In this document: positions 6,703 to 38,660 of the stretch, piece by piece
Position numbering within the stretch: the stretch's first letter is position 1
Layout of the letters: each line of letters opens with the position of its first letter
NCBI GenBank assembly: GCA_013821825.1
Contig: PNJK01000029.1
Location: 1-40,031 of the forward strand
Direction of reading: 5' to 3'
Length of the DNA stretch: 40,031 bases
DNA from: Rhodobacter sp.
Lineage (GTDB): Bacteria > Pseudomonadota > Alphaproteobacteria > Rhodobacterales > Rhodobacteraceae
Made by a program: the position numbers and the translations under genes
The notes under the pieces: model-generated
The model's database searches: none
Seen by the model: the letters and a program-made list of their open reading frames with translations, nothing else
What the model was told of the DNA's origin: nothing

Positions 6703-6756
6703 CATCGTCCTCGGTCCCTGATGCAGCCAGCCTGTCACGCTGCCCGCCGTGGTGCC

Positions 6757-17090: not shown

Positions 17091-17116
17091 AGCTCAGACT
17101 GGGTAGGAATTCCACC

Positions 17117-17731: not shown

Positions 17732-17737
17732 CAGACG

Positions 17738-18925: not shown

Positions 18926-18935
18926 GGACGCAGAG

Positions 18936-22298: not shown

Positions 22299-23984
22299 TC
22301 AGGGCTTTGGTCCCGGCCACAACCCTGCGGCCTCTTCAGCGCTGTAGCGGCCGAGGCGCACATCCTCGGCCACCAAAGCCGGATCGCGGGCCGCTGGCGG
22401 CCCGTAGCCACCACCGCCCGGCGTGCGGACCCGCACCCTGTCTCCGGGCTTCAGGGCGATATCCTGCGCCTTGGACAGATGTTCCGGGATCAGCGTCTCT
22501 CCCCCCCGGATCACCTCGACCAGATTGACCGCGCCGTCCTGCCCGCCGAGTACGCCCTGCGGACCGACGCGGCCATGGTCCATCACGAAACTGGCCCGCG
22601 CCTCGCCGCGCAAAAGCTCGATCTCGTAATCCAGGCCGAAGCCGCCACGATGCTGCCCAGCCCCGCCCGAGCCTTCGTGCAAGGCATAGCGGCGGTAAAG
22701 GACGGGATAGGTCTGCTCCATGATCTCGACCGGGGGCGCCTTCGAAATGCCGATGGTGGAACAGCCGTTTGAAATCCCGTCCCCCCGGGCAAAGCCGCCA
22801 TAGCCGCCGCCCGAGATCTGGTACATCACATAGTCCCGGCCCCTTTCAGGATCATGCCCGCCAAGCCCGAAATTGCCCGAGGTGCCGGCAGGCGCGGCCG
22901 TCACCTGGCCCGGCAAGGCTTGTACCAGGGCTGCAAAGACGGCTTCGGCAATGCGCTGGCTGACCTCGGCGGCGCAACCAGACACGGGGCGCGGATAGTT
23001 GGCGTCAAGGAACGTGCCTTCGATCCCGGTGACGGTCAGCGGCTCGAATGCGCCCGCCGAGATCGGCACATCCGGGAAGATATGGCGCATGGCGAGGTAG
23101 ACCGACGAAAGCGTCGTGGCGCGGACCGAGTTCATCGGGCCGATGCAGGGCGGAGAGGAGCCCGCGAAGTCGAATGTCAGGCCATCGGCGGTTTTCGTGA
23201 CCGTCAGGGAGATTGTCAGCGGCTGGTTCACCACCCCGTCGCTGTCGACGATGGCGGTACTGTCGTAGCTGCCGTCCGGGATCAGGCCAATCATCGCCCG
23301 CATCTGTTTGGCGGCCAACTCGCGCATCCGTGCAATCGCCTCGGTGACCGTCGCATCGCCGTAGCGGTCGAGAAGTCCGGCAAGCCGCTCCGCCCCTACC
23401 AGAAGGGCCGAGGCCTGCGCCTTCACATCGCCGATCCGCTGCTCTGAAACGCGGATGTTGGAACAGATTATCTGATATATTTCAGTATCCAGCACGCCTT
23501 TCTTAAAAAGCTTCACCGGCGGAATGCGCAGGCCTTCTTGTTCGGCGCTGATCGCACTGGCGGAAAAACCGCCCGGCACCGCGCCGCCAGTATCGGGCCA
23601 GTGGCCGGTGTTGGAAAGCCAGCAAAAGATCGCACCGCCCCGGTAGACCGGCATCGCGAAACGCACATCCATCAGATGCGTGCCGCCTAGGTAGGGATCG
23701 TTGACGATGTAGATGTCGCCGGGCTCTGGCGCGGAGGTGATCCCGCTGGCGATACGCTCAAGGATCGTGCGGGTGGAAAACTGCATCACGCCGACAAAGA
23801 CCGGCAGGCCCTTGGACCCCTGCGCGATCAGGCTGCCGTCCGTGGCGGAATAGATGCCGTCTGACCGGTCATCCGCCTCGGCAATGACCGGGGAAAAGGC
23901 GGCGCGAGAGAAGGTCAGGTCCATCTCGTCGCAGACCTGCTGCAGGCCAGCCTGGATGACGGCAAGGGTGACGGGGTCGATCAT
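22299..23984 (-). CDS. hyuB: Hydantoinase B/oxoprolinase family protein
   Basis: A 561-residue HyuB subunit. With HyuA it forms an ATP-dependent cyclic amide hydrolase of the type that opens hydantoins, 5-oxoproline or related lactams (acetone carboxylase relatives exist too). Family motifs visible are MDLTFSRAAFSPVIAEADD, GDIYIVNDPYLGGTHL, GGAVPGGFSASA, DFAGSSPP and GGGGYGPPAARDP near the end. It overlaps hyuA by 4 bp (ATGA). It is the last gene of the long catabolic run, 33 bp from the convergent RND gene. The role proposed here, opening of a reduced N-heterocycle lactam, follows from its neighbours, not from its sequence. Confidence 0.92.
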   Translation of the reverse strand: MIDPVTLAVIQAGLQQVCDEMDLTFSRAAFSPVIAEADDRSDGIYSATDGSLIAQGSKGLPVFVGVMQFSTRTILERIASGITSAPEPGDIYIVNDPYLGGTHLMDVRFAMPVYRGGAIFCWLSNTGHWPDTGGAVPGGFSASAISAEQEGLRIPPVKLFKKGVLDTEIYQIICSNIRVSEQRIGDVKAQASALLVGAERLAGLLDRYGDATVTEAIARMRELAAKQMRAMIGLIPDGSYDSTAIVDSDGVVNQPLTISLTVTKTADGLTFDFAGSSPPCIGPMNSVRATTLSSVYLAMRHIFPDVPISAGAFEPLTVTGIEGTFLDANYPRPVSGCAAEVSQRIAEAVFAALVQALPGQVTAAPAGTSGNFGLGGHDPERGRDYVMYQISGGGYGGFARGDGISNGCSTIGISKAPPVEIMEQTYPVLYRRYALHEGSGGAGQHRGGFGLDYEIELLRGEARASFVMDHGRVGPQGVLGGQDGAVNLVEVIRGGETLIPEHLSKAQDIALKPGDRVRVRTPGGGGYGPPAARDPALVAEDVRLGRYSAEEAAGLWPGPKP

Positions 23985-26014
23985 CGGGACATCTCCACGA
24001 TCAGGTTGCCATCGGCGTCGGAGGTGACGGCGCAGCCCGGTTCGATCACGCTCGTCGTGTCCATTTGTTCAATGATTGCCGGGCCTTTCAGGGACAAGTT
24101 CAACGGCAGGTGGTCGCGCCAGTAAACCGGCGTGTCGACCCAGCCGCTGAACCAGACCGGGCGGGTTTCCTTCGGTTTGGCGTTCGCCATCCGTTCTTTT
24201 GGGTCGATCAAGCGCGACAGGTCGAGTTCAGCCCTTTGGCCGATCACCGAGCAGTTTAGGTTCACGAGGTTCGCCCGGATCGTCGGCAGATCGACGCGGA
24301 AGCGGGCGTGATAGGCAGCCTCGAACAGACGCTGCAGGTCGGCACGGCTGGGGGTGGCAGTAGGCAGCGGGACGCGCAGCAGGTGGGTCTGGCCGACGAA
24401 CTGCATCTCGGCGGAATATTCGGCGCGGGTCGTCGTCAGGGTGATCTTCTCGGCCGCGATCAGGCGGCGGCCCTCGGCCTCTTGCTGGCCAAGAATCGCG
24501 TGAACTTCGGCCATGTCGGCGCTGTCGAGGGGACGGTTGACGGTTCGGACGAAATCATGGCGCAGATCGGCGACGACGCACCCGAGAGCATTGGTGATAC
24601 CGGGGCGGGCGGGGATCAGTACCTTCGGGATCGCAAGTTCCCGAGCCAGCGCCACAGCGTGCAAGGGCCCTGCTCCGCCAAAGGCAAAGAGCGCAAAGTC
24701 GCGGGGGTCGGCACCGAGGGATATCGAAACCATGCGGATCGCGCCCGCCATATGGGTGTTGGCGACACGGATCACCGCCTCGGCCGCCGCTTCGGTGGAC
24801 AGACCCAAGGGTGTGCCGATCTGGTCGGCCATCGCCTGCCGTGCGGCCTTAGCCGCCTGGCCAAAGCGGGCGGCGGGTAGACGGCCAAGGATAAGATTGG
24901 CGTCCGAGATGGTGATTCTGCTGCCGCCACGGCCATAGCAGACCGGCCCGGGGCTGGAGCCGGCACTCTCCGGGCCGACGCGCAACATGCCGCCCGCGTC
25001 GATCCGGGCAATGCTGCCGCCCCCCGCCCCGACGGTGCGCACGTCGACCATCGGCACATGGATCGGCATTGCGTATTCGACCTCGATTTCGTTCGAGACC
25101 GGGGCAACGCCGCCCTTGATCATCGCGACATCGGTCGAGGTGCCGCCCATGTCATAGGTCAGAAGGTTCGGCATACCGGCCCTTCGCCCGGTGGCGACGG
25201 CGGCCATCACCCCGGATGCAGGGCCGGACATCACGGTCTTAACCGCTTCCTTCGCTACATCCCGCGCGGCGACCATGCCACCGTTGCCATTCATCACCAG
25301 AAGGTCGCGGGCATAGCCCTTCGCGGCCAGCTGATCGGCCAGACGGGCGACGTAGCGTTCGAGGAGCGGCTGGACGCTGGCGTTGACCGCAGCCGTCACA
25401 ACGCGTTCGTATTCGCGGCTTTCCGACAGCAGCGCATGGCCCATTGTGATGTAGCGGTTGGGCCAGAGGTCAGCGGCAATCTTCGCGGCGCGCAGCTCGT
25501 GCGCGGGGTTGGCGTAGGCGTGCAGGAAATGGATGACCAGGCTTTCGCAGCCTGCCTCGCGCAGCCGGATCACGGCATCCCGCAGGGCGGCCTCGTCCAA
25601 AGGCGTGAGGACGCGGCCCTTGGCATCCATTCGTTCGGGGATTTCCAGCCGCAGGTCGCGGGGAATGACGGGGGTGAAGCTGCCGTGCATCCCATAGGCC
25701 TGCGGGCGGGTGCGGCGGCCAAGCTCCAGGACATCGCGGAAGCCCTGGGTGGTGATCAGGCCGGTTTTCGACAGCCGGCGTTCGAGGACGGCGTTTGTGG
25801 TCGTCGTCGTGCCGTGGACAATCAGGTCGATGTCGCCAAGCTCGGCTCCGGCCGCGTCAAAAGCGGCAAGAACCCCGCCGGACTGGTTCGGCAGCGTCGT
25901 CGGTACCTTGGCCAGCCGCACGTCGCCGGAAGCGGGATCGAAGATCACCAGATCGGTGAAGGTGCCGCCCACATCGACCCCGGCAACCAACCCTTGACCA
26001 GCAGGACGGGCCAT
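23981..26014 (-). CDS. hyuA: Hydantoinase A/oxoprolinase family protein
   Basis: A 677-residue HyuA subunit with the actin/hexokinase-like ATP-binding fold. Signature segments are AGVDVGGTFTDLVIFDP (about residues 11-27), IVHGTTTTTNAVLERR, LTYDMGGTSTDVAMIKGG, GAGGGSIARIDAGG, CYGRGG and FGGAGPLHAVALA. The C-terminal part (from about 500) is the usual beta domain. The ATG follows the LivF stop codon directly (TGAATG), and the stop overlaps hyuB. Together the pair performs ATP-dependent ring opening of a cyclic amide. Tight coupling to an ABC importer suggests that the imported compound is, or is turned into, a lactam. Confidence 0.93.
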   Translation of the reverse strand: MARPAGQGLVAGVDVGGTFTDLVIFDPASGDVRLAKVPTTLPNQSGGVLAAFDAAGAELGDIDLIVHGTTTTTNAVLERRLSKTGLITTQGFRDVLELGRRTRPQAYGMHGSFTPVIPRDLRLEIPERMDAKGRVLTPLDEAALRDAVIRLREAGCESLVIHFLHAYANPAHELRAAKIAADLWPNRYITMGHALLSESREYERVVTAAVNASVQPLLERYVARLADQLAAKGYARDLLVMNGNGGMVAARDVAKEAVKTVMSGPASGVMAAVATGRRAGMPNLLTYDMGGTSTDVAMIKGGVAPVSNEIEVEYAMPIHVPMVDVRTVGAGGGSIARIDAGGMLRVGPESAGSSPGPVCYGRGGSRITISDANLILGRLPAARFGQAAKAARQAMADQIGTPLGLSTEAAAEAVIRVANTHMAGAIRMVSISLGADPRDFALFAFGGAGPLHAVALARELAIPKVLIPARPGITNALGCVVADLRHDFVRTVNRPLDSADMAEVHAILGQQEAEGRRLIAAEKITLTTTRAEYSAEMQFVGQTHLLRVPLPTATPSRADLQRLFEAAYHARFRVDLPTIRANLVNLNCSVIGQRAELDLSRLIDPKERMANAKPKETRPVWFSGWVDTPVYWRDHLPLNLSLKGPAIIEQMDTTSVIEPGCAVTSDADGNLIVEMSR

Positions 26015-26702
<688 letters not shown>

Positions 26703-26713
<11 letters not shown>

Positions 26714-27422
26714 GATAGGCCTCCTGCACTGCCTTGTCCGCGCGGATTTCGGCCGGTGAGCCGGTCGCAAGGATCCGGCCGAAGTTGAGGACGGTGATCC
26801 GGGTGGCCAGATCCATCACCAGATCCATGTTGTGTTCGATGAGCAGCACCGTCGTTTGCGGCACCAGGCTGCGGACCAGAGCCTTGAACCCTTCGATCTC
26901 GCTGGCGGCAAGGCCCTGCGTCGGCTCGTCCAGGATCAAAAGCCGTGGGGCAAGTGCAAGGCCCATCGCCAGTTCCAGCAGCCGCTGGTGCCCGTAGCTG
27001 AGGGTCTGGGCTTCCTGCCCCTCCAACCCCTCCAGCCCGACCCGGGCCAAGGCGGCGCGCGTCTTGACCGTGACGCCGCGCGCCCCTCGTGACTGGACCG
27101 CAAGGGCCACGTTGTCGAAGACCGACAAACGGGGAAAGATGCTGGTGATCTGGAAAGTATAGGCGATCCCCTTGCGCACCCGGGCATGCGCGGGAAGCCG
27201 GGTGATATCCTCGCCCGCCAGTCGGATCGAGCCGGACTGCGGCAGGCGGCGACCGGAGAGGAGACTGACAAAGGTGGTCTTCCCCGCCCCGTTCGGGCCG
27301 ATCAGGGCATGAATCTCCCCCGGTCGCAGGGAGAAATCCACCCCGTCCACGGCGCGCAGTCCGCCAAAATGCAGCGTCAGACCTTTCGTTTCGATCAGGG
27401 GACTTTCGATCACGGCAGCCAT
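26703..27422 (-). CDS. livG: Liv-type ABC transporter ATPase, LivG
   Basis: A 239-residue ATPase, second nucleotide-binding subunit of the importer. Walker A is GPNGAGKTT, signature-type LSYGHQR, Walker B LLILDEPTQGL and the switch IEHNMDLVMDLA, followed by the LivG-like C-terminal EIRADKAVQEAYLGA. The ATG at 27422 has AGGTGG upstream and overlaps the end of livM by 13 bp. The signature reads YGHQR where LSGGQ is usual, which is common in LivG. The frame is open far upstream but those codons are livM in another frame. Confidence 0.93.
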
Positions 27423-28357
27423 CTGGCCCACCTTTCCCGGATCGTCCCAAGGATGCCCTTCGGCGCAAAAAGGACTAGGATCACCAGCGCCAACCCGACA
27501 ATGAAAAGGTAGGCCGAGGTCAAGTCGGATGCGAACTCGATCAGGTAGAACATGAGGACGGCCCCCAGGAACGGGCCAAGGACCGTGCCCGCCCCGCCAA
27601 GCAGCACGTAAAGCATCGGCAGGATCGAATACTGGATGCTGGCAAAGCTGGCCCCGGCATAGCCGAACAGCAGTGCCCAGGCCGCCCCAGCCCCACCCGC
27701 GTATAGGCCGGAGATCACCAGCGCGGCAAGCTTCACAGTAAAGGGGTTGTAGCCCAGCATCCGGCTGCGCTCCTCGTTCTCGCGCATCGCAACCATCGTG
27801 CGGCCGAAGGACGACCGGACCAGCGCAAGGCTGGCCAGAAGGCCTGAAGCGAACAATCCGAACGCGGCAAGAAAGCGCGGCGTGTCTGTAGCAAGCGAAA
27901 AGCCAAGGATCGTCCGGCTGGCGGCAGGCAAGGCAAAGCCGTCGTCCCCGCCGGTCACCGGAGCGAAGTAGAGGATGGTCAGGAACCCGGCCTGCGCGAA
28001 CATCAGCGTCACGATCATGAAGCTGACCCCGGCGGTGCGCAGCGCCAGAAGGCCCACGGCTCCGGCCATGAGCCCCCCGGCCGCAATCCCCGCGATCAGG
28101 GCCGGTCCCGCCGTCCAGCCCCATAGCTGCGCCGGAATGCTGGCCGCATACATGCCCGCAGCCAGCAGCAGCGCATGCCCCAGGCTGAGCAGGCCAGTGT
28201 AGCCGAAGGCGAGGTTATACCCCATGGCGAAGACGGCCAGCACCATGATCCGGGCCAGGTTCGTGGCATGGTAGGGCGACAGCCAGTACTGCGCCGCGAA
28301 GACCACGACCAGCACCGCCGCGTGGAGCGCCCAGATCCTTGCCCCTCCGCCCGTCAT
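27410..28357 (-). CDS. livM: Liv-type ABC transporter permease, LivM
   Basis: A 315-residue inner-membrane permease with about nine to ten TM segments. Typical LivM parts are LARIMVLAVFAMGYNLAFGYTGLLSLGHA and later GAAWALLFGYAGASFASIQYS. The Gly/Ala-rich GTVLGPFLGAVLMFY lies near the end. It overlaps livH by 4 bp (ATGA). It forms the membrane channel together with LivH. No sequence sign of the substrate is visible. Confidence 0.93.
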   Translation of the reverse strand: MTGGGARIWALHAAVLVVVFAAQYWLSPYHATNLARIMVLAVFAMGYNLAFGYTGLLSLGHALLLAAGMYAASIPAQLWGWTAGPALIAGIAAGGLMAGAVGLLALRTAGVSFMIVTLMFAQAGFLTILYFAPVTGGDDGFALPAASRTILGFSLATDTPRFLAAFGLFASGLLASLALVRSSFGRTMVAMRENEERSRMLGYNPFTVKLAALVISGLYAGGAGAAWALLFGYAGASFASIQYSILPMLYVLLGGAGTVLGPFLGAVLMFYLIEFASDLTSAYLFIVGLALVILVLFAPKGILGTIRERWARWLP

Positions 28358-29232: not shown

Positions 29233-29289
29233 CAGTCGTCCCGCTGGTTGCGTGCAACAGGCCATCCGGTTTCGCAGCAGGTCGCCTCG

Positions 29290-29309
29290 CCTCCCCCCTT
29301 GCGGGGAGG
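29290..29309. repeat. GC-rich hairpin, gap between binding-protein gene and livH
   Basis: A 7-bp stem CCTCCCC and GGGGAGG with a 6-base loop. Together with a second hairpin at 29363-29386 it fills the gap. C/G-only palindromes of this kind recur between genes in many alphaproteobacteria, as I remember it. They may slow or partly end transcription. Confidence 0.5.
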
Positions 29310-29362
29310 GGCTGGTGGTGGGGGCCCCGGCAGCATACCGAAAGGCCGCCCCCCCTCCCTGA

Positions 29363-29386
29363 CCCTCCCCCACAACGGGGGGAGGG
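29363..29386. repeat. GC-rich hairpin after the substrate-binding-protein gene
   Basis: A 9-bp stem CCCTCCCCC and GGGGGAGGG around a loop of six bases, 33 bp after the stop codon of the binding-protein gene on the minus strand. It could stabilise that part of the message, so that the binding protein is made in excess over the permeases. It has no T-run. Confidence 0.5.
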
Positions 29387-29418
29387 AAGCGCTTGGTGCC
29401 CTGGGCTTCATCTTCGCC

Positions 29419-30693
29419 CTAGAACGCCATCGTCGTGTAGTCGACCGCATCCCCATAGGCGCCATCGGCCATCGAGGTCTGATGCACGCGCACCAGTTTG
29501 CCGCCCTGCACCTGGCTGATGTTCTGGGTGCCAAAGACCTGATGGGTCTTGCCGTTGAAGACCTTGGCGCCCTGCGGACGTTCGATGCCATAAGGCAGAT
29601 CGGTCATAGCCTCCATCGCTTCGACGAACTTCTGCCGGTCGGCCGGCCCGGTATAGCCCGAGGCCTCCATCCCTGCCTTGATCGCGAACAGCGTCTCCCA
29701 GGTAGAGAACATGTGGGAATAGGTTGCGATGTCCGCCGCGTCGCTGACCGATGCGCCGTTGTCATCGACCCCGACGGCGGCGCGATAGGCGTCCTCGTGT
29801 TCTCCCGCATCCGCAGGCTTGACCCGGTTGTGCGCCTCCCAGAAATGCGAGCCTTCGAGGAATTCCAGGCCGGGGGTGGCGGTATCCACGGCTTCAAGGC
29901 TGTCGATGAAGCCGAAGAACTGCGGCTTGGCACCAGTGCCGTAGAACTCTCCCAGTTCCTTGACGAAGGTCAGGACAGCGGGGCCGACCATGACGTGATA
30001 AAGGACCTCGGTCTCCGCCGGGATCTGCGGGAGGTAGCGGGTAAAGCTGGTTTCGGTAGGCGGAATGGCGATCTGGGCGATCACCTCGCCGCCCTGCGCG
30101 GCCATAGCGGCGGTGAAGAAATCGCGGTGGTCGTGGCCGAAGGCGAAGTCCGGGAAGATCATCGCGACCTTCTTGCCAAGGTTCGCCGAGACCCACGGCG
30201 CCATTGCGGTAATCTGGCTGCGGACATCGGTGATGCCGGGCTGCATCGTCCAGCGGTTCAGGATGCCCGAAGCGACATGGTAGCCTTCCGAGCACACGAG
30301 ATACGGCACCTTCAATTCGCCCGCGCGCGGGGCGGAGGCGATGACAACGTTGCTGAAGAGCGTTCCCATCACCACGTCGGAGCCGTCCGACTGGGTCAGC
30401 TTGTCGACCACTTCCGGGCCGCGCTTGGGGTCGGTCCCATCATCCTCGAACAGGATCTCCACGGGCCGCCCGGCGATTCCGCCGCCGTCGTTTATCAGCT
30501 TCAGCGCGGCCTGCGCGGTACGTTCGTACCAGCGACCATACGAGGCGCCGATCCCGGTGCGGTGCAGCTGGAAGCCGATCTTGATCGGCGCGGCCTGCGC
30601 GCCGACGTAACCCGGCAGCGCCGCGGTCAGAAGGCCGGCGCCCCCGGCCATCAGAAGCCCGCGGCGGGTGGGATGAAGCAGCGTGTTCGTCAT
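29419..30693 (-). CDS. ABC transporter substrate-binding protein, Liv (Peripla_BP_6) type
   Basis: A 424-residue periplasmic binding protein. The N-terminus carries a twin-arginine signal (TRRGLLMAGGAGLL) with a cleavage site near GYVGAQA. The mature part has the Peripla_BP_6 start, IKIGFQLHRTGIGASYGRWY, then GGIAGRPVEILFEDDGTDP. GGAG lies ten bases before the ATG. It belongs to the group of amide or aromatic-acid binders rather than the classic LivJ, going by its Tat signal and context; I cannot name the ligand. The gene follows the 12-TM protein after 80 bp and leads the transporter block. Confidence 0.9.
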   Translation of the reverse strand: MTNTLLHPTRRGLLMAGGAGLLTAALPGYVGAQAAPIKIGFQLHRTGIGASYGRWYERTAQAALKLINDGGGIAGRPVEILFEDDGTDPKRGPEVVDKLTQSDGSDVVMGTLFSNVVIASAPRAGELKVPYLVCSEGYHVASGILNRWTMQPGITDVRSQITAMAPWVSANLGKKVAMIFPDFAFGHDHRDFFTAAMAAQGGEVIAQIAIPPTETSFTRYLPQIPAETEVLYHVMVGPAVLTFVKELGEFYGTGAKPQFFGFIDSLEAVDTATPGLEFLEGSHFWEAHNRVKPADAGEHEDAYRAAVGVDDNGASVSDAADIATYSHMFSTWETLFAIKAGMEASGYTGPADRQKFVEAMEAMTDLPYGIERPQGAKVFNGKTHQVFGTQNISQVQGGKLVRVHQTSMADGAYGDAVDYTTMAF

Positions 30694-30773
30694 GTCCGTC
30701 TCTCCACTGTTGCGGCCTATCGTTGGGCCATTGCACCTATCAGGGGCCTGCGCCCCGGAATTGTCCAGTCTTT

Positions 30774-32174
30774 TCATCCGGTTCTGGCTGTGGACAAGAG
30801 CCAGAGACCAAGCACCGTGTATGCCACCATCAGGATCGACATCGGCAGATGCGCCAGGGGCCGCGCGCCCGGCCCGGCCAGCTTGAGCCCCAGGATCACC
30901 GCAAGAAGATGCGCGCCAAGGATGGCCGCGAACTGCGCCCCGTAGATCAAGGGCATCACGCGGGGGTCTGACAGAAAGCCGAAAGAGACATAGAAAGGCG
31001 GCAACCCCAGCCAGCTTTCACCCTGAAACAAGGGATCGTTCAGCGCAGCGAGGGTATATTGCCCGGCGGTCAGCAGCATCACCAGATAATGCGCTGCATG
31101 ATAGCCCGCCGCGATGGCGAGGAACGACAGCATCACCGGTCCGGTGGCAAACCCGCCACCCACGCGACGGCCGAGCGTGATTGCAGCAAGGATCAGACCC
31201 AGCGTCAGCACCCAGACCGCCAGCAGCCCCACCGTGTTCACCCCCATGACCGCGCTGCGGCCGGTCGGCTCCAGCGGGTTCTCGCCGATCAGCCCCAGCC
31301 ACCAGAAGGTTTCGGCCAGCCCGTCGAAGGTGAGAGCGGCGAGCGCCAGGCTGACAAAGACAACTGCCGAGGACGACAGTGCTGCCATCTGCAGCACCTG
31401 CGTCCCGGGCCAGCCGCGCATCAGGCGGGCGCGGGGTCCGGTGATCTCCAGCCAGAAGGGGGCAACCTTTGCGACAAGGCCGAAAAGCACAGTCAGGAAC
31501 TCACCCTGGGCCAGCCAGTCCTCGCCCTCCAGCACCGCCAGCGTGAAGATCACCAGCCAATAGGCCAGCGCGACTTGTGCAAGCACGGCCGGATCGTCGG
31601 GGTAAAGCGAGACCATCTGGAACCAGACGAACCCTGCGTAACCCAGCACGGCGGGCCAGTGTCCGATGCGCGCAAGACCGATGGAACCCGTTCTGGCCAG
31701 CAGGGCTCGGGCGATCCTGACCAGCCCGGTCCAGGGATTCAGTGGGCGCCAGAGATTGCCGAAAAGCATCGACCCCAGCGGCACCGCGATCCAGACCCCG
31801 GTCCAGAAAATCAGCGTCATCAGGTTGTGCATCGGGTCACGCTCGCCGAAAAAGCCGACAAAGATCAGGCCCAGAAAGCCAAGGAAGGCGAGGTAGGAGG
31901 TCAGCGTCTCGGGCAGGAAGACAGGGCGCTCCCACACCAGGCGCGGCGCCATGACCGGCAGGCGGTGCGCCAAGGCGCCAAGAAGGGCGGTCAGACCCAC
32001 GGTCAGGGCGGCGGCGGTGATGTAGTGCCCGGTGGGCAGGGTCAGAATGACCGAGGGCGGCAGCGCGCAGGCAAAGGCAATGCCGGGGAAAAGCGCCAGA
32101 CCGACACCCGCAGTACCAAGAATCTTTGAAAATTCCTGGCAAAATCCATCGAGGGATCTCGGTCCCTGCCTCAC
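30774..32174 (-). CDS. Polytopic membrane protein of unknown function (about 12 TM)
   Basis: A 466-residue protein with about twelve hydrophobic segments, for example near residues 18-36, 42-68, 90-109, 115-137 and 165-185, up to the last at about 440-462. The conserved-looking loop GFFGERDPMHNLMTLIFW and the RPLNPWTGL stretch recall a family of bacterial membrane proteins sometimes annotated as fenitrothion hydrolase; this is from memory and unproven. No known transporter signature is seen. The ATG overlaps the stop codon of the DUF1185 gene (ATGA), so translation is coupled and a role in the same pathway is likely. It could be a permease or a membrane part of an electron-transfer or uptake step. 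Confidence 0.7.
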   Translation of the reverse strand: MRQGPRSLDGFCQEFSKILGTAGVGLALFPGIAFACALPPSVILTLPTGHYITAAALTVGLTALLGALAHRLPVMAPRLVWERPVFLPETLTSYLAFLGFLGLIFVGFFGERDPMHNLMTLIFWTGVWIAVPLGSMLFGNLWRPLNPWTGLVRIARALLARTGSIGLARIGHWPAVLGYAGFVWFQMVSLYPDDPAVLAQVALAYWLVIFTLAVLEGEDWLAQGEFLTVLFGLVAKVAPFWLEITGPRARLMRGWPGTQVLQMAALSSSAVVFVSLALAALTFDGLAETFWWLGLIGENPLEPTGRSAVMGVNTVGLLAVWVLTLGLILAAITLGRRVGGGFATGPVMLSFLAIAAGYHAAHYLVMLLTAGQYTLAALNDPLFQGESWLGLPPFYVSFGFLSDPRVMPLIYGAQFAAILGAHLLAVILGLKLAGPGARPLAHLPMSILMVAYTVLGLWLLSTARTG

Positions 32175-32752
32175 CGCAAGCCGTCCTCCCCCTTGACCTG
32201 ATCAATCTCGAGCCCGCCCATCCGGCTGTGCACCCTACCACCCCGCGCCATGGCGAGCGCGAACAGCACCTCGCCCGACCGGGGCCCATCGGCGCAGGCG
32301 ACGGTGATCACGTCGAAGCGCGACCGGACATAGGCGGCGTTCAGATGGCCAAGGGGGATATCAAGCGTCGCCCCCATGCCGCCGACCTTCATCGCGCTTG
32401 GCACGATGGCGCGACACTCGCCCAGCCGCTCGCGCATCCCGTAACCCCCCGCGACATGCCAGAGCGCACCGTGTTCGCTTTCGCCGCGCTCGCCCACGAC
32501 CGCACCCTTGCCATAGGCGTCGATCCCGGCACGCCCGCCCAGCGCCGTGACCAGCCGGTCGGTCAGCTGCAGCGCCAAGGGTTTCAGAGCGTCCATCGCC
32601 GGTTGCAGGTCAGGTTCGTATCGGCCCGCGAAAGGGTTGGCGCAGATCGCATAGATCGCGCCCCGCAGTGGTGGCGGGGTCACCAAGGGACCCCCTTCGT
32701 GCAGGATTTCCTCGATCTGCACCACGATCTTGCGAAGGGCAAACTCAGTCAC
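32171..32752 (-). CDS. DUF1185 (amino acid synthesis family) protein
   Basis: A 193-residue protein of the family named amino acid synthesis (DUF1185), known from structures but without a proven reaction. It starts MTEFALRKIVVQIEEILHEG and has the family pattern AGRYEPDLQPAMD, GIDAYGKGAVVGE, GESEHGALWHVAGG and PSAMKVGGMGATLDIPLGH. The last third is YVRSRFDVITVACADGPR. It overlaps the UPF0280 gene by 8 bp and the membrane protein gene by 4 bp. Family members often occur in clusters with 6-hydroxynicotinate-reductase-like and UPF0280 genes, as I remember. An enzymatic role on a small cyclic or acidic intermediate is inferred from context. Confidence 0.85.
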   Translation of the reverse strand: MTEFALRKIVVQIEEILHEGGPLVTPPPLRGAIYAICANPFAGRYEPDLQPAMDALKPLALQLTDRLVTALGGRAGIDAYGKGAVVGERGESEHGALWHVAGGYGMRERLGECRAIVPSAMKVGGMGATLDIPLGHLNAAYVRSRFDVITVACADGPRSGEVLFALAMARGGRVHSRMGGLEIDQVKGEDGLR

Positions 32753-33725
32753 GCGCCACCTCCCCTTCCGGCACGGCCAGCGCCCCGGTCATCTGCACCT
32801 CACCCTGCAGGAAAAGTGCCGCGCCTTCAATGAGGCCTCTTTGCCGGAACCCTTCGGCAGCCTGCAGACCCGCCACCAGCGCCCTGCCCCGGTCATCTGC
32901 CGAAAACGGCGGCACCGCGGTGGTCGCCAGCCGGTCGCCAAGATCGCTGTCGGCCGCCACCGTGCGCGCCGGGCAGCGACGGATGCCGGGATGGCCCGGC
33001 ACGTCCACCGCATTCGCGATCATCGTCGCCGCCGCATCCGCCATCGCCGCCGTCCTGGCCAGCACCGTCACTGAGTCGGCTACTCCCAGCGACAGGCTCC
33101 GTCCCCGCCATCCCGAGGTGGCAATGCCCCGCACCGGATTACCGGCACGCAACGTCACCCGGTCCATGCCCCCGGTCACCGCCAAGGCGCAGGTCAGGCT
33201 CTCGCCGGGCGCCAGCCACAGCGCAATATCGCCGCCATTGTTGACATAGGCCCGCCGCAGGCCCGCGCCGCGGATGGCCGCCAGAACTTCCTCGGCCACC
33301 GCGCCCGCCACCGCGGCCATCGGCGTGATGAAGGCCGGACGAAACGGCGCGACGGCCGCCGCCATGCGCCGCGCGATGCCACCCCTTACCGCTGCCGCTT
33401 CCGCCCGCAGCGCCGGAAGTTCTGCCACCAGTTCTTCCAGCATCGTATCAAATCGTCCAGCAGCCCGCGCATAGGCCGCCCGCACTGCCACCGCGTCGCC
33501 AAAGGCTTCCGCTACGATGTCGATCGGCCCCTGCTGCAGATGCAACCGCCCGTCCGGCAGCAATGCCGCCACCGCCCCCTTGGGCTTGCTCTTTTCAAAA
33601 ATGCTTCCGCCGGAGGCAGACCCGAGCCGGTTGGCGGGAACCGCCAGAGGCGAGACAGGCTCTTGCAGCCGCGCGCGCCTGCGCGGCTGCGCGATTTCAA
33701 GGGCATTGCTCACCGCGCGGGCCAT
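32745..33725 (-). CDS. UPF0280 (ApbE-like) family protein
   Basis: A 326-residue protein of UPF0280, a family in the superfamily of ApbE flavin transferases. Visible parts are GPIDIVAEAFGDA, TPMAAVAGAVAEEVLAAI, YVNNGGDIALWL, GIATSGWRGRSLSLGVADSV and AAMADAAATMIANAV. These match the ApbE core (NxGGD, TSG, ADA) in order. The ATG at 33725 overlaps the upstream gene by 16 bp; a GTG at 33713 overlapping by 4 bp is also possible. ApbE attaches FMN covalently to a Ser or Thr in target proteins. The upstream neighbour is related to an enzyme known to carry covalently bound flavin, so this protein may be its maturation factor. That is inference. Confidence 0.82.
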   Translation of the reverse strand: MARAVSNALEIAQPRRRARLQEPVSPLAVPANRLGSASGGSIFEKSKPKGAVAALLPDGRLHLQQGPIDIVAEAFGDAVAVRAAYARAAGRFDTMLEELVAELPALRAEAAAVRGGIARRMAAAVAPFRPAFITPMAAVAGAVAEEVLAAIRGAGLRRAYVNNGGDIALWLAPGESLTCALAVTGGMDRVTLRAGNPVRGIATSGWRGRSLSLGVADSVTVLARTAAMADAAATMIANAVDVPGHPGIRRCPARTVAADSDLGDRLATTAVPPFSADDRGRALVAGLQAAEGFRQRGLIEGAALFLQGEVQMTGALAVPEGEVARD

Positions 33726-35146
33726 GGCTCGACCTTTGCGGCTGTGGGGTATTCGCCACCCTCTTCGACGGATTGGTCCAGCGTGCGGATGCTCCCCGCA
33801 TGCCCGCCCATCGCCAGATAGGCGTCGCGCGACAGGGTGAACTCCAGTGGGGCGACTAGGGCGGGTGTCGGGACATAGCCGAAAGCCCCCTTCGGCAACC
33901 GGGAGACATCGACCATGAAAGTGATGCCGCCGCCGGGCCAGACGTAGGTTTCGGCCCCGCCAGAGGTCAGCCGCGTGATACCGCCCTGAACCGACCGGGT
34001 CAGCCGGACCGGGTTCTGCGTCACCCCGGCCCGCAACGACCCGCCTGCCCCGCCCATGAACAGAACCGTGCAAAGCGACGGCTCGCAATTCTCGTCGATC
34101 AGCTGGACGGTCTTCAGCAAGGCCTCCGGCAATTCCTGCCGCAGCGGCCTTAAGTCCTGATCCAGCACGTAGTAGGCGTATTGTTCGCCGGTGGTCGACG
34201 CCATCAGCAAGGTCAACCCGGCTCTGGCGCCCTTCTTCGGGTTCCAGTCGCCAAGGATCTCCAAAGGATCGGTCAGCTTTGTGCCACCCCAGCCCTGCCC
34301 AGGTTCGCTCACCCGGAAATACCGCCCGGGCGTCGAACGATGGCCCTTGATCTTGATCCCCGTCGGCTCCCAGCCCAGCACCTTGCCGGCCTGATGCTCG
34401 CTGACGACGCCGGTGATATGGTCATCGACCACGACCACCTCATCGACAAGCCCGCGCCACTGCGCGGCAAACATCCCGATCGTGGCCGAGCCGCAACCGA
34501 CCCGCATCCGACGCTCGCGCAGCCCGTCGACCACCGGCGCCTGCCCGGCCTGCACCACGACACGAGAGCCGCCTTCGATCTCCATCTCCACCGCCTCGCC
34601 ATTGCAAAGCGCCAGCAAGGCGGCACAGGTCAGGCGCCCCTCGGCCTTGCTGCCCCCGGTCAGGTGATGCACGCCCCCCAAAGACAACATCTGCGACCCG
34701 TATTCCGCGGTGGTCACATGGCCAACCGGCTCGCCCTCAACCCGGACCACTGCTCCTTCCGGGCCGAGGAACCGGTCGGTGTCGATCTTCACCTTGACTC
34801 CGCAATAGGAAAAGATCGCCTCGGTGACCACGGTGACCATGTCTGCCCCGTCCACCTTGCTGGAGATGATGAAGGGCGCGGGCTTGTAGTCGGGGTAGGT
34901 CGTCCCGGATCCGATCCCGGTCACGAAGGCATCGGCGGGAACAGGCGAGCCGTCCCAATCCCGCACAGCGAAAGGCACCACCCGTCCCCCCGCCTCGACA
35001 GCATGCGACAGCATCACCACCGGGTCGGTTCGCACGATCCGACCCGCCGCGTTGGCATAGCGGTCACAGGCACCGGTCTGGCCGGGGGCAATATAGCACA
35101 TCACCGGACAGGCATCGCAGCGGATCTTTTCCAGAGCCTCAGTCAT
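33710..35146 (-). CDS. 6-hydroxynicotinate-reductase-like Fe-S flavoprotein
   Basis: A 478-residue protein like 6-hydroxynicotinate reductase (Hnr) of Eubacterium barkeri. That enzyme uses ferredoxin to reduce 6-hydroxynicotinate to 1,4,5,6-tetrahydro-6-oxonicotinate, and has covalent flavin plus several Fe-S clusters. Here an N-terminal cluster motif is clear: Cys10, Cys13, Cys17 and Cys27 in RCDACPVMC and GACDRY. Further Cys are at 115, 174, 181, 218, 354 and 359. Other segments are GIGSGTTYPDYKPAPF, SLGGVHHLTGGSKAEG and MGGAGGSLRAGVTQNPVRL. It overlaps the hydroxylase gene by 4 bp. That the protein reduces a hydroxylated N-heterocycle follows from homology and from its neighbour; the true substrate may differ from nicotinate. 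Confidence 0.8.
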   Translation of the reverse strand: MTEALEKIRCDACPVMCYIAPGQTGACDRYANAAGRIVRTDPVVMLSHAVEAGGRVVPFAVRDWDGSPVPADAFVTGIGSGTTYPDYKPAPFIISSKVDGADMVTVVTEAIFSYCGVKVKIDTDRFLGPEGAVVRVEGEPVGHVTTAEYGSQMLSLGGVHHLTGGSKAEGRLTCAALLALCNGEAVEMEIEGGSRVVVQAGQAPVVDGLRERRMRVGCGSATIGMFAAQWRGLVDEVVVVDDHITGVVSEHQAGKVLGWEPTGIKIKGHRSTPGRYFRVSEPGQGWGGTKLTDPLEILGDWNPKKGARAGLTLLMASTTGEQYAYYVLDQDLRPLRQELPEALLKTVQLIDENCEPSLCTVLFMGGAGGSLRAGVTQNPVRLTRSVQGGITRLTSGGAETYVWPGGGITFMVDVSRLPKGAFGYVPTPALVAPLEFTLSRDAYLAMGGHAGSIRTLDQSVEEGGEYPTAAKVEPWPAR

Positions 35147-37815
35147 GGCTTTGCCCCCATGGCCGCATGAACCCGGTGCGGCAAGGCCGGAACGCGGGTG
35201 ATCTCGGCCCCGGTCGCGTGGCGGATCGCATTCAGGATCGCAGGCGCAGTCGGGATCAGGACATGCTCGCCCAGACCCTTGGCACCGTAGGGGCCTTCTG
35301 GGTCGGGCACCTCGATCAAGAGGCTTTCAATGGGGGGCACATCGCCGAAAGTCGGGATCAAGTAGTCGTGCAGGTTTTCCGTCCGGCCCGGCAGGTATTC
35401 CTCCATCAGCGCCAGTCCGATGCCTTGCGCGATGCCGCCCTCGATCTGGCCGCGCGCAAGGACCGGATTGATCACCCGGCCCAGATCATGCGCCGCCGTG
35501 ATCTTCAGAAGCTTGACCGTGCCCAGTGCCGCATCCACCGCCAGTTCCACCAGCTGCGCGCCGTAGCCGTAGACGGCATAGGGCGAACCTTGCCCGTCTG
35601 CGTCCAGGGGCGAAGTCGGCGGATCATAGCTTGCCTCGGCCGACAGCACATGGCCATGCGCATCGGGTGGCAGGGCAGCAAGGTCGATCCGCCGCAGGGT
35701 CGCCCCGTCCTGCACGGTGACCGTCGCGCCCTCAAGCCCCAGGACCGCGCCGTTGCCCGCATTTGCCAGCCGCAAGACCTTTGCCCGCAAACCCTCTGCC
35801 GCTGCCTGCGCCGCGCGCCCCGACACGAAGGTCTGCCGGCTGGCCGAGGTCTTGCCCGCATCCGGGGTCAGGCCTGTATCCGGGCCGATCAGCCGGAAGG
35901 CCGCCAAGGGCAATCCCAGCGCCTGCGCCGCGATCTGGGCGATCACCGTGTTCGACCCCTGGCCAATATCCGTCGCACCCTGATGCAGAACCACTTCGCC
36001 TGCCGGCGAAAGCCCGATCCGGATGGTGGACGGGTTCGGCAAAGCCGTATTCCCGCAGCCATACCAGCATGAGGCGACACCGACACCGCGGCCCGCCTTG
36101 CCCTTCGCCTCGGACAGCGCCCGCGCCCAATGCGGCCGCAGCGCGGTCAAGCAGTCATGGATGCCGACCGCATGCAGGACCTGACCGGTAGAGGTCGTAT
36201 CGCCATCGCGGAGCGCGTTCAGGATGCGGAACTCCAGCCGGTCGATCCCAACCTTGTCTGCCAGCCGGTCGTACAGCGTTTCCTGCCAGAGCGCGCCTTG
36301 CGGCACGCCAAACCCCCTGAACGCACCCGAAACCGGCCCATGTGTGTGGATAGCGCGGGCTTTCGCGGCGATGGCTGGAGTCAGGTACGGCCCCGAGACA
36401 TGCACCGGCACACGGTTCGCCACGGTTGGCCCCCAGCTGGAATAGGCCCCGGTATTGAAGCGCCCTTCGAACTCCATCCCGGTGATCCGACCCTTTGCAT
36501 CACAGCCAATCCGGCCCCGCATCTCGGCCGGGTGGCGTTTGGTGGTCGAGGTCATGCTGTCGTGCCGGCTGTAGACCATCCGGCAAGACCGCCCGGTCTT
36601 CAGCGTCACCAGCCCGATCAGGGGCTGCAATGATATGTCGAGTTTGGAGCCGAACCCCCCGCCCACGGCAGACGGAATGATCCTGACCCTCTCGACCGGC
36701 AGCCCGAGGATTGCCGCGGTATCCTCGCGGTCCATGCCCGGAGCCTGGGTGCAGGCGCGGATGACGAGTGTGTCGCCATCCATCCAGGCGGACCCGGCCT
36801 CGGGCTCGATATAGGCGTGTTCGACGAACGCCGTGGACATCTCGCCTTCGACGACATGGGCCGAGGTAGCCAATGCGGCGACGGCATCGCCCTTTCGCAC
36901 CCGGCCTTCGATCAGAATGTTGCGTGGGCGTGCGGGATGGATCAGCGGGCCGGATTCAGCCTCTTCCGGGGTCGCAAGTGCGGGCAGCGGCGTCCAGGTG
37001 ATCGGGAAACCGGCAAGGTCGGCATCGGCCCCCGGCTCGAACGCGACCAGCGCCACGCATTCGCCGCGGAACCGGGCTGGAGACGCGGCAATGGCCGGCT
37101 GGTCGGCAAAGGACGGAATGACAGAGAATGTGTTGCGGCCGGGGATGTTGGCGGCGGTGTAGACCGCAGCCACCCCCGGGCCGGCGCGGAAGGCGGAAAG
37201 ATCGCCTATGTCAAACGCCGCATGCGGATACGGCGAGCGTATTGCCATGACGGTCAACGCTCCGGCGGGCCACTCGTCTGCCCCGAAACTGTCGCCAGCA
37301 ACCTTGGCCGCTCCGTCAAGCCGTTGGACGGCGACACCAACCGCGCCCTCGACCACGGGTGCGGCAGGGGCACCCTGCCCCGCCGCAACCACGGCGGCGA
37401 TGATGCTGCGATAGCCGGTGCAGCGGCAGAGAACGCCACCAAGGGCGGTCTCGACCTCTGTCGCCGTGGGATGCGGTTTCAGGATCAGCAGTTCTGCCGC
37501 CGTCATCAGCATGCCCGGCGTGCAGATGCCGCATTGCGCCGCCCCTTCGGCCAGAAAAGCCGCGCGCAGGCGGGTCAGTTCCGGCGTCTCGCCTTCAACC
37601 GTGGTGACATGCCGCCCCGCAACGCGCGCGGCCGGCGTCAGGCAGGCGCAGACCGCCGCCCCGTCCAGCAGCACCGTGCACGCCCCGCAATCGCCCGCAT
37701 CGCAGCCGACCTTGGTGCCGACCATCAGAAGACGTTCGCGCAGGGTCTCGCTCAGCCGTTCGCTCGGAGGGGCATCGGTCGAGACCGCAACGCCATTCAG
37801 GGTGAAGGCGATCAT
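35143..37815 (-). CDS. Molybdopterin hydroxylase, fused [2Fe-2S] and Mo-binding subunits
   Basis: An 890-residue enzyme of the xanthine dehydrogenase family. Residues 1-150 are the small subunit with two [2Fe-2S] clusters: Cys38, 43, 46, 56 and Cys95, 98, 130, 132. From about 160 on comes the molybdopterin part, starting VQRLDGAAKVAGDSFGADEW, with GGGFGSK, SGAFRGFGVP and GQGSNTVIAQIAAQALG. The catalytic Glu is probably Glu850 in GAKGLGEHVL. In most bacteria these are separate L and S subunits; the fused form recalls Desulfovibrio aldehyde oxidoreductase. The FAD subunit is the gene just upstream. Likely job: adding a hydroxyl group from water to a ring carbon beside nitrogen, as nicotinate dehydrogenase does. 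No gene for Mo cofactor insertion (XdhC/CoxF type) is in the window. Confidence 0.93.
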   Translation of the reverse strand: MIAFTLNGVAVSTDAPPSERLSETLRERLLMVGTKVGCDAGDCGACTVLLDGAAVCACLTPAARVAGRHVTTVEGETPELTRLRAAFLAEGAAQCGICTPGMLMTAAELLILKPHPTATEVETALGGVLCRCTGYRSIIAAVVAAGQGAPAAPVVEGAVGVAVQRLDGAAKVAGDSFGADEWPAGALTVMAIRSPYPHAAFDIGDLSAFRAGPGVAAVYTAANIPGRNTFSVIPSFADQPAIAASPARFRGECVALVAFEPGADADLAGFPITWTPLPALATPEEAESGPLIHPARPRNILIEGRVRKGDAVAALATSAHVVEGEMSTAFVEHAYIEPEAGSAWMDGDTLVIRACTQAPGMDREDTAAILGLPVERVRIIPSAVGGGFGSKLDISLQPLIGLVTLKTGRSCRMVYSRHDSMTSTTKRHPAEMRGRIGCDAKGRITGMEFEGRFNTGAYSSWGPTVANRVPVHVSGPYLTPAIAAKARAIHTHGPVSGAFRGFGVPQGALWQETLYDRLADKVGIDRLEFRILNALRDGDTTSTGQVLHAVGIHDCLTALRPHWARALSEAKGKAGRGVGVASCWYGCGNTALPNPSTIRIGLSPAGEVVLHQGATDIGQGSNTVIAQIAAQALGLPLAAFRLIGPDTGLTPDAGKTSASRQTFVSGRAAQAAAEGLRAKVLRLANAGNGAVLGLEGATVTVQDGATLRRIDLAALPPDAHGHVLSAEASYDPPTSPLDADGQGSPYAVYGYGAQLVELAVDAALGTVKLLKITAAHDLGRVINPVLARGQIEGGIAQGIGLALMEEYLPGRTENLHDYLIPTFGDVPPIESLLIEVPDPEGPYGAKGLGEHVLIPTAPAILNAIRHATGAEITRVPALPHRVHAAMGAKP

Positions 37816-38660
37816 GACAGCGCCTCCGTCACAGCGCGGCGGACCAGTTCGACCGCTGCCGCGCCCCGATAGGCCGGTGTTGCACGGACATCGTCGATGG
37901 GCGACAGGGCGGCCATCACGTCCCCCGCCGCAATGCGTCCGGTCGCCTCGCCAGCCACCGCGCCACGCAAAGCCGCCTCTACCGCAGGCAACCTGGTAGC
38001 CACGGCCGAGCAGGACCCGACCGCGACAGCAGCTTCGGTCACCCTGCCCGCCTCAACCACCACCCGCGCCGCGACCATGGCGATCGAGATCACCAGATGC
38101 GTCCGCGCGCCCAGCTTCACAAAGGCCGACCGGCCGGACAGCCCCGCCTCAGGGATCACGACCGCCACCATAACCTCGCCTGCCCGAAGGGCCGTCTTGC
38201 GCGGGCCTAGCAGGAAATCCGTCAGGGCAAGCCGCCGGATTCCCTCCGCCGAGGCCAGTTCCACCTCTGCCCCAAGCGCCAGAAGTGGCGGCACCCCGTC
38301 GGCCGCCGGTGAGGCGTTGCATAGGTTTCCGCCGATGGTCCCGGCCACCTGGATCTGTCGCCCCCCAACCAGCGACGACGCTTGCTGCAAGGCGCGCAGG
38401 GCCGGGGGCAGTCCCGCCGCCCCAGCAATCTCGGCCCAGGGCGTCGCCGCCCCGATCCGCAGGCCGTTGTTCGTGGTGATCCCGCGAAACCCGCTGATCT
38501 CCGTCACATCCAGCACTGACCCCGGCAATGCTCGCCCGGTGCCGGGATAGAGGTCCGTCCCCCCGGCCAGCACCCGCCAATTCCCCTCCGCCAGCAGCCG
38601 AAGCGCCTCGGTCAGGGTCACGGGTCGGGCATAGGAGGACACGGCAGCTCCCATATTCAT
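37812..38660 (-). CDS. FAD-binding subunit of the molybdenum hydroxylase
   Basis: A 282-residue medium subunit (CoxM type). It passes electrons from the Fe-S clusters to FAD and on to the acceptor. The N-terminal part has WRVLAGGTDLYPGTG and the middle part TIGGNLCNASPAADGVPPLL, both FAD-binding signatures; the C-terminal CO_deh_flav_C domain follows (about 170-275). Two starts are possible: ATG 38660 (MNMGAAVS) and ATG 38654 (MGAAVS). Neither has a clear ribosome binding site, and the predicted transcription start lies only a few bases upstream, so leaderless translation is possible. It is the first gene of the long catabolic run and overlaps the next by 4 bp. Confidence 0.92.
   Translation of the reverse strand: MNMGAAVSSYARPVTLTEALRLLAEGNWRVLAGGTDLYPGTGRALPGSVLDVTEISGFRGITTNNGLRIGAATPWAEIAGAAGLPPALRALQQASSLVGGRQIQVAGTIGGNLCNASPAADGVPPLLALGAEVELASAEGIRRLALTDFLLGPRKTALRAGEVMVAVVIPEAGLSGRSAFVKLGARTHLVISIAMVAARVVVEAGRVTEAAVAVGSCSAVATRLPAVEAALRGAVAGEATGRIAAGDVMAALSPIDDVRATPAYRGAAAVELVRRAVTEALS

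What the first reader, a model, noticed from the sequence alone, without database searches (positions are those of the whole stretch)
22299..38660. Predicted import and reductive degradation locus for an N-heterocyclic compound
Thirteen minus-strand genes, mostly overlapping, join a Mo hydroxylase, a 6-hydroxynicotinate-reductase-like protein, UPF0280, DUF1185, a 12-TM protein, a full Liv-type importer and HyuAB. The order of chemistry makes sense: uptake, ring hydroxylation beside N, ring reduction to a lactam, ATP-driven lactam opening. Ring reduction of nicotinate is described from fermenting Eubacterium barkeri; a version in a hemA-carrying alphaproteobacterium with a different ring opener would be a new pathway variant. 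The substrate is not shown by the sequence.
Basis: partly seen in the sequence, partly recalled or inferred. Interest (0 to 1): 0.85.

Follow-up and report, generated by a model that had tools for sequence, protein, structure and literature searches.

The report
Vitamin B3 breakdown, swapped ring opener
This gene cluster most likely lets the bacterium import and eat nicotinate (vitamin B3) by reducing its ring, a route already known in related soil bacteria, but here the usual ring-opening enzyme (enamidase) appears to have been replaced by an unrelated ATP-using lactam-opening pair, HyuAB.

Summary
Confirmed: thirteen co-directional, tightly packed genes. Not unprecedented: a reductive nicotinate route and Hnr cluster are published for aerobic Azorhizobium and Bradyrhizobiaceae (PMC3511419, passages). 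Relatives point to nicotinate: nicotinamidase lies near Hnr in 34 of 163 loci, and a NicAB-type hydroxylase replaces the Mo hydroxylase in 9. The novelty is the ring opener. Of 385 class genomes, 68 have Hnr; 39 of these carry a HyuB orthologue and 29 an enamidase, none both, none neither, at 64% identity or more. Twenty-seven further Hnr genomes split 14/13, though two HyuB genomes also hold a 61-62% enamidase-like gene. The Hnr tree needs at least five switches on well-supported branches. HyuAB therefore most likely does the enamidase's job, with ATP. UPF0280 is in all 68 Hnr genomes and over its cut-off in none of 317 others; its fold is ApbE-like, making it a candidate flavin transferase for Hnr, but the usual target motif (0 of 164 Hnr) and an invariant His are missing. 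Nothing was assayed.

The parts
38744..39163 (+). MarR-family regulator, divergent; likely regulator of the operon (inferred)
   Evidence: PF12802/PF01047; MarR matched in 111 of 163 Hnr loci
37812..38660 (-). FAD subunit of the molybdenum hydroxylase (NdhF-like)
   Evidence: PF00941, PF03450
35143..37815 (-). Fused 2Fe-2S + molybdopterin large subunit (890 aa); predicted nicotinate 6-hydroxylase
   Evidence: Fer2, Fer2_2, Ald_Xan_dh_C, MoCoBD_1/2. PDB: best hits aldehyde oxidoreductases; E. barkeri nicotinate dehydrogenase 3hrd chains also match (1.3e-69, 3.6e-58, 2.3e-29) but are not the closest
33710..35146 (-). 6-hydroxynicotinate reductase (Hnr); predicted to make 1,4,5,6-tetrahydro-6-oxonicotinate (THON)
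   Evidence: Matches in 68 of 385 class genomes; annotated so in plasmid relatives; C10, C13, C17, C27 (CxxCxxxC...C), C115, C218, C354 invariant in 57 aligned
32745..33725 (-). UPF0280 protein, ApbE-like fold; candidate flavin transferase for Hnr (true start probably up to ~45 codons further in)
   Evidence: NF003322 over cut-off; fold search: 2o34, then only ApbE/Ftp/FmnB down to E 0.1; matches in 68 of 68 Hnr genomes, over cut-off in 0 of 317 others
32171..32752 (-). DUF1185 / AA_synth protein, role unknown; frequent partner of Hnr
   Evidence: PF06684; 3byq and 2qtp are relatives; at least one copy in 118 of 133 Hnr loci of 17 kb or more
30774..32174 (-).
   Evidence: No family; among 133 loci of 17 kb or more, 43 have it: 40 with separate LivH, 3 with no permease matched, none with the fused LivHM importer
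29419..30777 (-). Substrate-binding protein of the importer
   Evidence: PF13458
28354..29232 (-). LivH-type permease
   Evidence: PF02653
27410..28357 (-). LivM-type permease
   Evidence: PF02653
26703..27413 (-). LivG-type ATPase
   Evidence: PF00005, PF12399
26015..26713 (-). LivF-type ATPase
   Evidence: PF00005
23981..26014 (-). HyuA: ATP-binding subunit of the predicted THON lactam hydrolase
   Evidence: PF05378, PF01968, PF19278; the two D-x-GGT motifs kept in 72 and 73 of 73 HyuA
22299..23984 (-). HyuB: partner subunit; orthologue and enamidase exclude each other in Hnr genomes at the set threshold
   Evidence: PF02538; partition

Best explanation
The locus is an uptake-and-entry module for nicotinate (and, through a nicotinamidase elsewhere in the genome, nicotinamide). 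A Liv-type ABC importer brings nicotinate in (inferred). The Mo hydroxylase adds oxygen next to the ring N to give 6-hydroxynicotinate (inferred from family and from the NicAB-type genes that stand in its place in some relatives). Hnr reduces the ring to THON (inferred from the published clusters). HyuAB opens the lactam C-N bond of THON with ATP to give 2-(aminomethylene)glutarate, which loses ammonia to 2-formylglutarate (inferred). In other bacteria the unrelated amidohydrolase enamidase does this step (that it needs no ATP is recalled). That HyuAB takes the enamidase's place is shown by complementary distribution, not by assay. UPF0280 probably serves Hnr (co-occurrence shown); covalent flavin attachment is a guess from its fold.
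For: HyuB and enamidase orthologues in the 68 Hnr genomes: HyuB only 39, enamidase only 29, both 0, neither 0; Fisher p 7e-20, not corrected for kinship. In 27 new genomes with the thresholds kept: 14, 13, 0, 0. The Hnr tree needs 8 changes, at least 5 on starred branches, against a mean of 28 in shuffles. The displaced amidohydrolase is enamidase-like: full-length match to 2vun, E 1e-106. HyuB of the Hnr genomes tested forms, with four genes of one Hnr-less family, a group with 100% SH-aLRT on a long branch. Substrate: nicotinamidase over its NCBIfam cut-off in 9 of 9 scanned, near Hnr in 34 of 163 loci, with both opener types (16 HyuAB, 3 enamidase, 15 unassigned); NicAB-type hydroxylase with both types (2 and 7). 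Published Hnr clusters.
Against: No biochemistry or growth data. Enamidase needs no ATP (recalled), so the benefit of an ATP-driven enzyme is not obvious. The window itself has neither PncA nor NicAB beside it; its substrate rests on relatives (its nicotinamidase is on another contig). The opener lies in the fetched stretch around Hnr in only part of the genomes: 21 of 38 HyuAB and 15 of 28 enamidase genomes, window included, some on short contigs. Two Hnr + HyuAB genomes also hold a 61-62% enamidase-like gene. One Hnr-less genome has an enamidase at 74%. HyuAB is below the caprolactamase cut-offs. Kinship-independent pairs are few: 4 of 4 go the expected way, p 0.125.
Confidence: 0.7

Rival explanations
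1. HyuAB-type clusters degrade a different N-heterocycle (for example another pyridine carboxylate), and enamidase-type clusters degrade nicotinate; the partition reflects two substrates rather than one step with two enzymes.
For: The Mo hydroxylase is not closest to known nicotinate dehydrogenase by sequence. A sister HyuAB group in Hnr-less genomes sits, in three of four, beside another Mo-hydroxylase-like gene, so HyuAB may serve several lactams.
Against: Nicotinamidase and NicAB-type hydroxylase occur near Hnr with both opener types, though few cases stand on one side of each (3 enamidase, 2 HyuAB); Hnr of both types is one family with repeated switches.
Confidence: 0.15
2. HyuAB acts on a later or side compound, and THON is opened by another frequent member of the cluster (DUF1185), with enamidase only redundant.
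For: DUF1185 is in 118 of 133 loci of 17 kb or more, with both types, and a second copy goes with enamidase: 23 of 34 enamidase loci against 3 of 80 HyuAB loci.
Against: E. barkeri enamidase opens THON (passages); it would not be missing in exactly the Hnr genomes that have HyuAB if DUF1185 did the job.
Confidence: 0.08
3. The partition is mainly kinship: HyuAB and enamidase lineages each inherited one gene, without functional exchange.
For: Labels are strongly clustered on the Hnr tree; independent pairs on starred branches are only 4.
Against: At least five switches on starred branches; no genome with both or neither among 95 at the set threshold.
Confidence: 0.07

Closest known systems
Hnr-type nicotinate degradation cluster of Azorhizobium caulinodans, Bradyrhizobium japonicum, R. 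palustris and strain SG-6C (PMC3511419, passages)
   Same: Hnr, genes of the first steps of nicotinate degradation, ABC importer and two conserved unknown genes; aerobic Alphaproteobacteria; route via THON
   Different: That cluster is said to hold the genes of the first three steps, found by BLAST with the E. barkeri genes; in the window's genome no enamidase was found at E<=1e-80 and HyuAB is in the operon. The two unknowns are not named in the passages read; that they are UPF0280 and DUF1185 is my guess
Eubacterium barkeri nicotinate fermentation (nicotinate dehydrogenase, Hnr, enamidase)
   Same: First chemistry: 6-hydroxylation, ring reduction to THON, hydrolytic opening (passages)
   Different: Enamidase replaced by HyuAB; one fused Fe-S/Mo subunit instead of separate NdhS, NdhL and NdhM (PMC10331938 passage); E. 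barkeri Hnr was not available for comparison
ATP-dependent lactamases: caprolactamase CapAB, 5-oxoprolinase, N-methylhydantoinase (HyuAB superfamily)
   Same: HyuA and HyuB domains over full length; CapA/CapB are the best NCBIfam models; 6yra and 7hk5 the best PDB matches
   Different: Below the CapA/CapB cut-offs (490 and 309 against 1000 bits); different expected lactam (THON)
ApbE flavin transferases (for UPF0280)
   Same: Fold search finds only ApbE/Ftp/FmnB after 2o34 down to E 0.1; invariant D230 and T234
   Different: Pfam ApbE far below cut-off (11.5 against 25.6 bits); no invariant His; no canonical target motif in Hnr

Membership tests
Hnr-type (THON) nicotinate degradation cluster | Hnr orthologue in the cluster | tested here: met
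   Window Hnr is about 58-90% identical to the Hnr of both opener types; not compared directly with E. barkeri or SG-6C Hnr
Hnr-type (THON) nicotinate degradation cluster | Enamidase gene | tested here: not met
   No match at E<=1e-80 in the window's genome; 29 of 68 Hnr genomes do have it. That the published clusters hold it is read from 'first three steps'
Hnr-type (THON) nicotinate degradation cluster | Nicotinate 6-hydroxylase | tested here: inconclusive
   Mo hydroxylase present; nearest solved relatives are aldehyde oxidoreductases, 3hrd also matches
Hnr-type (THON) nicotinate degradation cluster | ABC importer in the cluster | tested here: met
Hnr-type (THON) nicotinate degradation cluster | Two conserved genes of unknown function | tested here: inconclusive
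   UPF0280 and DUF1185 fit, but the passages read do not name the two
Hnr-type (THON) nicotinate degradation cluster | Growth on nicotinate through 6-hydroxynicotinate and THON | not testable with these tools
   Needs strains and metabolites
ATP-dependent HyuAB lactamase superfamily | Complete HyuA (N, A, C) and HyuB domains | tested here: met
   PF05378, PF01968, PF19278, PF02538
ATP-dependent HyuAB lactamase superfamily | Two actin-like phosphate motifs in HyuA (motifs recalled) | tested here: met
   72 of 73 and 73 of 73 HyuA at >=50% identity
ATP-dependent HyuAB lactamase superfamily | ATP-dependent lactam hydrolysis | not testable with these tools
   Needs purified enzyme
Caprolactamase CapAB (equivalog) | NCBIfam cut-offs NF050156, NF050157 | tested here: not met
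   489.9 and 309.1 bits against 1000
ApbE flavin transferase (UPF0280) | ApbE fold | tested here: met
   Foldseek ranks 3-41 are all ApbE/Ftp/FmnB, probability 0.63-1.00, but TM (by query) only 0.26-0.43
ApbE flavin transferase (UPF0280) | Pfam ApbE over cut-off | tested here: not met
   11.5 bits against 25.6
ApbE flavin transferase (UPF0280) | General-base His (PMC12052999 passage) | tested here: not met
   No His column invariant in 141 UPF0280; best 0.94 at position 62, N-terminal
ApbE flavin transferase (UPF0280) | Target motif D-x-x-[ST]-G-A-[ST] in a partner | tested here: not met
   0 of 164 Hnr, 0 of 163 DUF1185, 0 of 134 NdhF, 0 of 141 NdhLS

The most novel reading that the evidence does not exclude
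HyuAB here is a new ATP-dependent THON hydrolase that has exchanged places with enamidase at least five times in one pathway, and UPF0280 is a dedicated cytosolic flavin transferase that loads Hnr through a target motif unlike that of ApbE; together they give functions to two unassigned protein groups.
Probability: 0.3. Interest if true: 0.75.

Novelty: new variant of a known kind. Interest (0 to 1): 0.6.

Why it matters
If true, more than half of the sampled Hnr-bearing Alphaproteobacteria (39 of 68) use an ATP-dependent lactamase in vitamin B3 catabolism where the described route uses enamidase. That is a clean case of repeated non-orthologous exchange of one enzyme for an unrelated one. It gives a function to a HyuAB subfamily that the models used here name only by superfamily, and it points to a testable role for UPF0280, which is over its cut-off in no Hnr-less genome of the class draw.

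Tried and rejected
Rejected: (a) that the cluster is the first reductive nicotinate route in an alphaproteobacterium (PMC3511419). (b) That a fold would place Hnr: the model is moderate (pLDDT 76), and the fold search gave no match under E 0.02; sequence and profile searches of PDB gave nothing better than E 0.26. (c) That Hnr carries the canonical ApbE target motif: 0 of 164. (d) That c16, next to nicotinamidase, is an enamidase: it is CitMHS_2. (e) A repeat in the SBP-LivH gap: none found.

Not tried: a DUF1185 fold search (both prediction jobs went to Hnr and UPF0280); comparison with E. barkeri Hnr, which no search reached. Kitts 1992 and Alhapel 2006 are not held; Kitts 1989 was not looked up. 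That E. barkeri Hnr has a covalent flavin is recalled. Of the 11 papers I saw passages of five; the other six only in the listing.

Choices that shape the counts: the 64% identity line for HyuB and enamidase was set after seeing and kept. For enamidase the gap is wide (64%, then 45%). For HyuB it is narrow: four Hnr-less genomes of one family have 61-62%, and six more places lie at 56-60%, one of them a second copy in an Hnr genome. At 60% for enamidase two of the 27 genomes would count as having both. The genome lists for and the 14/13 split were taken from the outputs by reading. Rows dropped: L061 Hnr (stop inside), near-duplicate loci L191 and L198, and L189 and L190 of 167 loci, whose best Hnr hit covered under 60% of the query. 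I fetched 80 of the 94 other unnamed Hnr genomes, the best 80 of 574 relatives and 6 of 26 plasmid hits. The first gene caller missed LivG and UPF0280 and was replaced.
Full report
Observation. In order of transcription: FAD subunit, fused 2Fe-2S/Mo large subunit, Hnr, UPF0280, DUF1185, a membrane protein, a substrate-binding protein, two permeases, two ATPases, HyuA, HyuB. A MarR gene diverges from the first gene. The window is one whole contig (C29) of a 234-contig draft genome. The same order is seen in named Rhodobacteraceae such as Tabrizicola sp. L031, and on a plasmid of Fuscovulum ytuae, where Hnr is annotated 6-hydroxynicotinate reductase.

Prior art. PMC3511419 (passages only) reports that Bradyrhizobiaceae strain SG-6C degrades 6-chloronicotinate through 6-hydroxynicotinate and the nicotinate route, and shows a conserved cluster with an Hnr (42% to E. 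barkeri in SG-6C), an ABC transporter and two conserved unknown proteins in A. caulinodans, B. japonicum, R. palustris and SG-6C. It says the reductive route was reported in aerobic Azorhizobium, citing Kitts 1989 and 1992. PMC9304392 and PMC7356986 (passages) say that E. barkeri opens THON with enamidase to 2-formylglutarate.

Survey. Hnr is in 68 of 385 genomes of the class draw and in 32 of 398 of the phylum draw, five of them already counted. I compared neighbourhoods in 163 loci, window included; they are a mixed sample, the 80 named ones being those nearest to the window. UPF0280 lies within two genes of Hnr in 157; the six misses are on loci of at most 7,245 bases. Nicotinamidase (NF008623; 9 of 9 scanned are over the cut-off) is near Hnr in 34 of 163 loci, next to the FAD-subunit gene in 28 of these, and NicAB-type hydroxylase genes are in 9, all without the fused Mo subunit in the stretch. 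Both occur with both ring openers. This points to nicotinate, reached from nicotinamide in some genomes. In the window's genome a nicotinamidase is on another contig.

The ring opener. Some clusters hold an amidohydrolase in place of HyuAB. The Sulfitobacter one matches PDB 2vun, enamidase, over its full length (E 1e-106). Searched in the same 385 genomes, HyuB orthologues at 64% identity or more occur in 39 and enamidases in 30. Among the 68 Hnr genomes: HyuB only 39, enamidase only 29, both 0, neither 0. Among the 317 without Hnr: HyuB 0, enamidase 1. As a test on fresh genomes, the 27 other Hnr genomes of the phylum draw were searched with the same lines: 14 HyuB, 13 enamidase, none with both or neither; but two HyuB genomes also have an enamidase-like gene at 61-62%, in one of them, G489, beside two DUF1185 genes and a weak MarR match (the other was not looked at). 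On a tree of 103 Hnr proteins, 98 of them labelled (66 by whole-genome search, 32 by what lies beside Hnr), the opener changes at least 8 times, 5 forced by starred branches, against a mean of 28 in shuffles; with the 66 whole-genome labels alone it changes 6 times. Kinship-independent pairs on starred branches number 4, all in the expected direction, too few for significance (p 0.125). The pattern is what repeated exchange of one enzyme for another at the same step would give.

HyuAB itself. The pair is complete, with both nucleotide-binding motifs. The best NCBIfam models are caprolactamase CapA and CapB, far below cut-off; nearest structures are 6yra and 7hk5. In a quick HyuB tree the 46 genes of Hnr genomes fall, with four genes of one Hnr-less family, in a group with 100% SH-aLRT on a long branch; the four lie inside it, so Hnr-linked HyuB is not a clade of its own. 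In three of those four the HyuAB lies beside another Mo-hydroxylase-like gene, and the fourth stretch ends with its contig, so the group may serve lactams made by Mo hydroxylases more widely. I infer that HyuAB hydrolyses the lactam bond of THON with ATP; the enamine product would then give ammonia and 2-formylglutarate. No step of this was measured.

UPF0280. Its predicted structure (pLDDT 87) matches 2o34 and after it only ApbE, Ftp and FmnB flavin transferases down to E 0.1, with low TM scores. It is matched in 68 of 68 Hnr genomes (65 over the family's cut-off, three as strong pieces) and over the cut-off in 0 of 317 others, where six weak matches appear. A role in loading a covalent flavin on Hnr would fit the covalent flavin that I recall for E. 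barkeri Hnr. Against it: Pfam ApbE is not reached, no His is invariant, and the D-x-x-[ST]-G-A-[ST] target motif (PMC12052999 passages) is in 0 of 164 Hnr. I put it at about 0.35.

Other parts. The 12-TM protein goes with the two-permease importer and never with the fused one in loci of at least 17 kb, so it is probably part of transport. A second DUF1185 goes with enamidase: 23 of 34 against 3 of 80 loci. The role of DUF1185 is open.

Literature limit. In the open-access library no paper joined hydantoinase with 6-oxonicotinate or with nicotinic acid and 6-hydroxynicotin-, and the five listed hold no mention of UPF0280. Searches showed no such link in their listings; passages of two more papers hold none either. 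Subscription journals are mostly missing, so the HyuAB variant may be in print elsewhere.

Verdict. Real, well conserved, mostly a known kind of cluster; the ring-opener swap is a new variant with strong comparative support and an easy bench test.

Noticed in passing
window 17075-22265 (+) and the left flanks of L038, L046, L048, L051, L053, L059: The gene trio c21-c19-c18 (by reading, a regulator, an efflux adaptor and an RND pump) lies at the HyuB end in the window but at the MarR/NdhF end in these six relatives. Not identified by a family search.
   Followed up: no
L212-L215 (G307, G217, G383, G114): One Hnr-less family carries close relatives of this HyuAB (60-61%), in three of four beside a Mo-hydroxylase-like gene: perhaps a lactam route without ring reduction.
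   Followed up: partly
L231 (G489) 4956-7830: A DUF1185-DUF1185-enamidase-like-MarR-like group without Hnr in a genome that has Hnr + HyuAB elsewhere: perhaps a related route for another compound.
   Followed up: partly
L208 (window genome, contig C144) 606-1208: A second DUF1185 gene outside the cluster, followed by an alpha/beta hydrolase-like and a flavin reductase-like gene (the latter two names from reading the sequence, not from a search).
   Followed up: no
left flanks of Rhodobacteraceae loci such as L031-L034, L046, L053, L059: A long OYE-family reductase gene (Oxidored_FMN plus FAD/NAD domain) lies near the cluster in 19 of 163 loci, 17 of them at 50% identity or more.
   Followed up: partly
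for example L069-L071, L087-L109, L119-L121: A ferredoxin-NADP reductase-like gene lies in 24 of 163 loci, next to HyuAB or enamidase in 20: a possible electron donor for Hnr, or merely an old neighbour.
   Followed up: no
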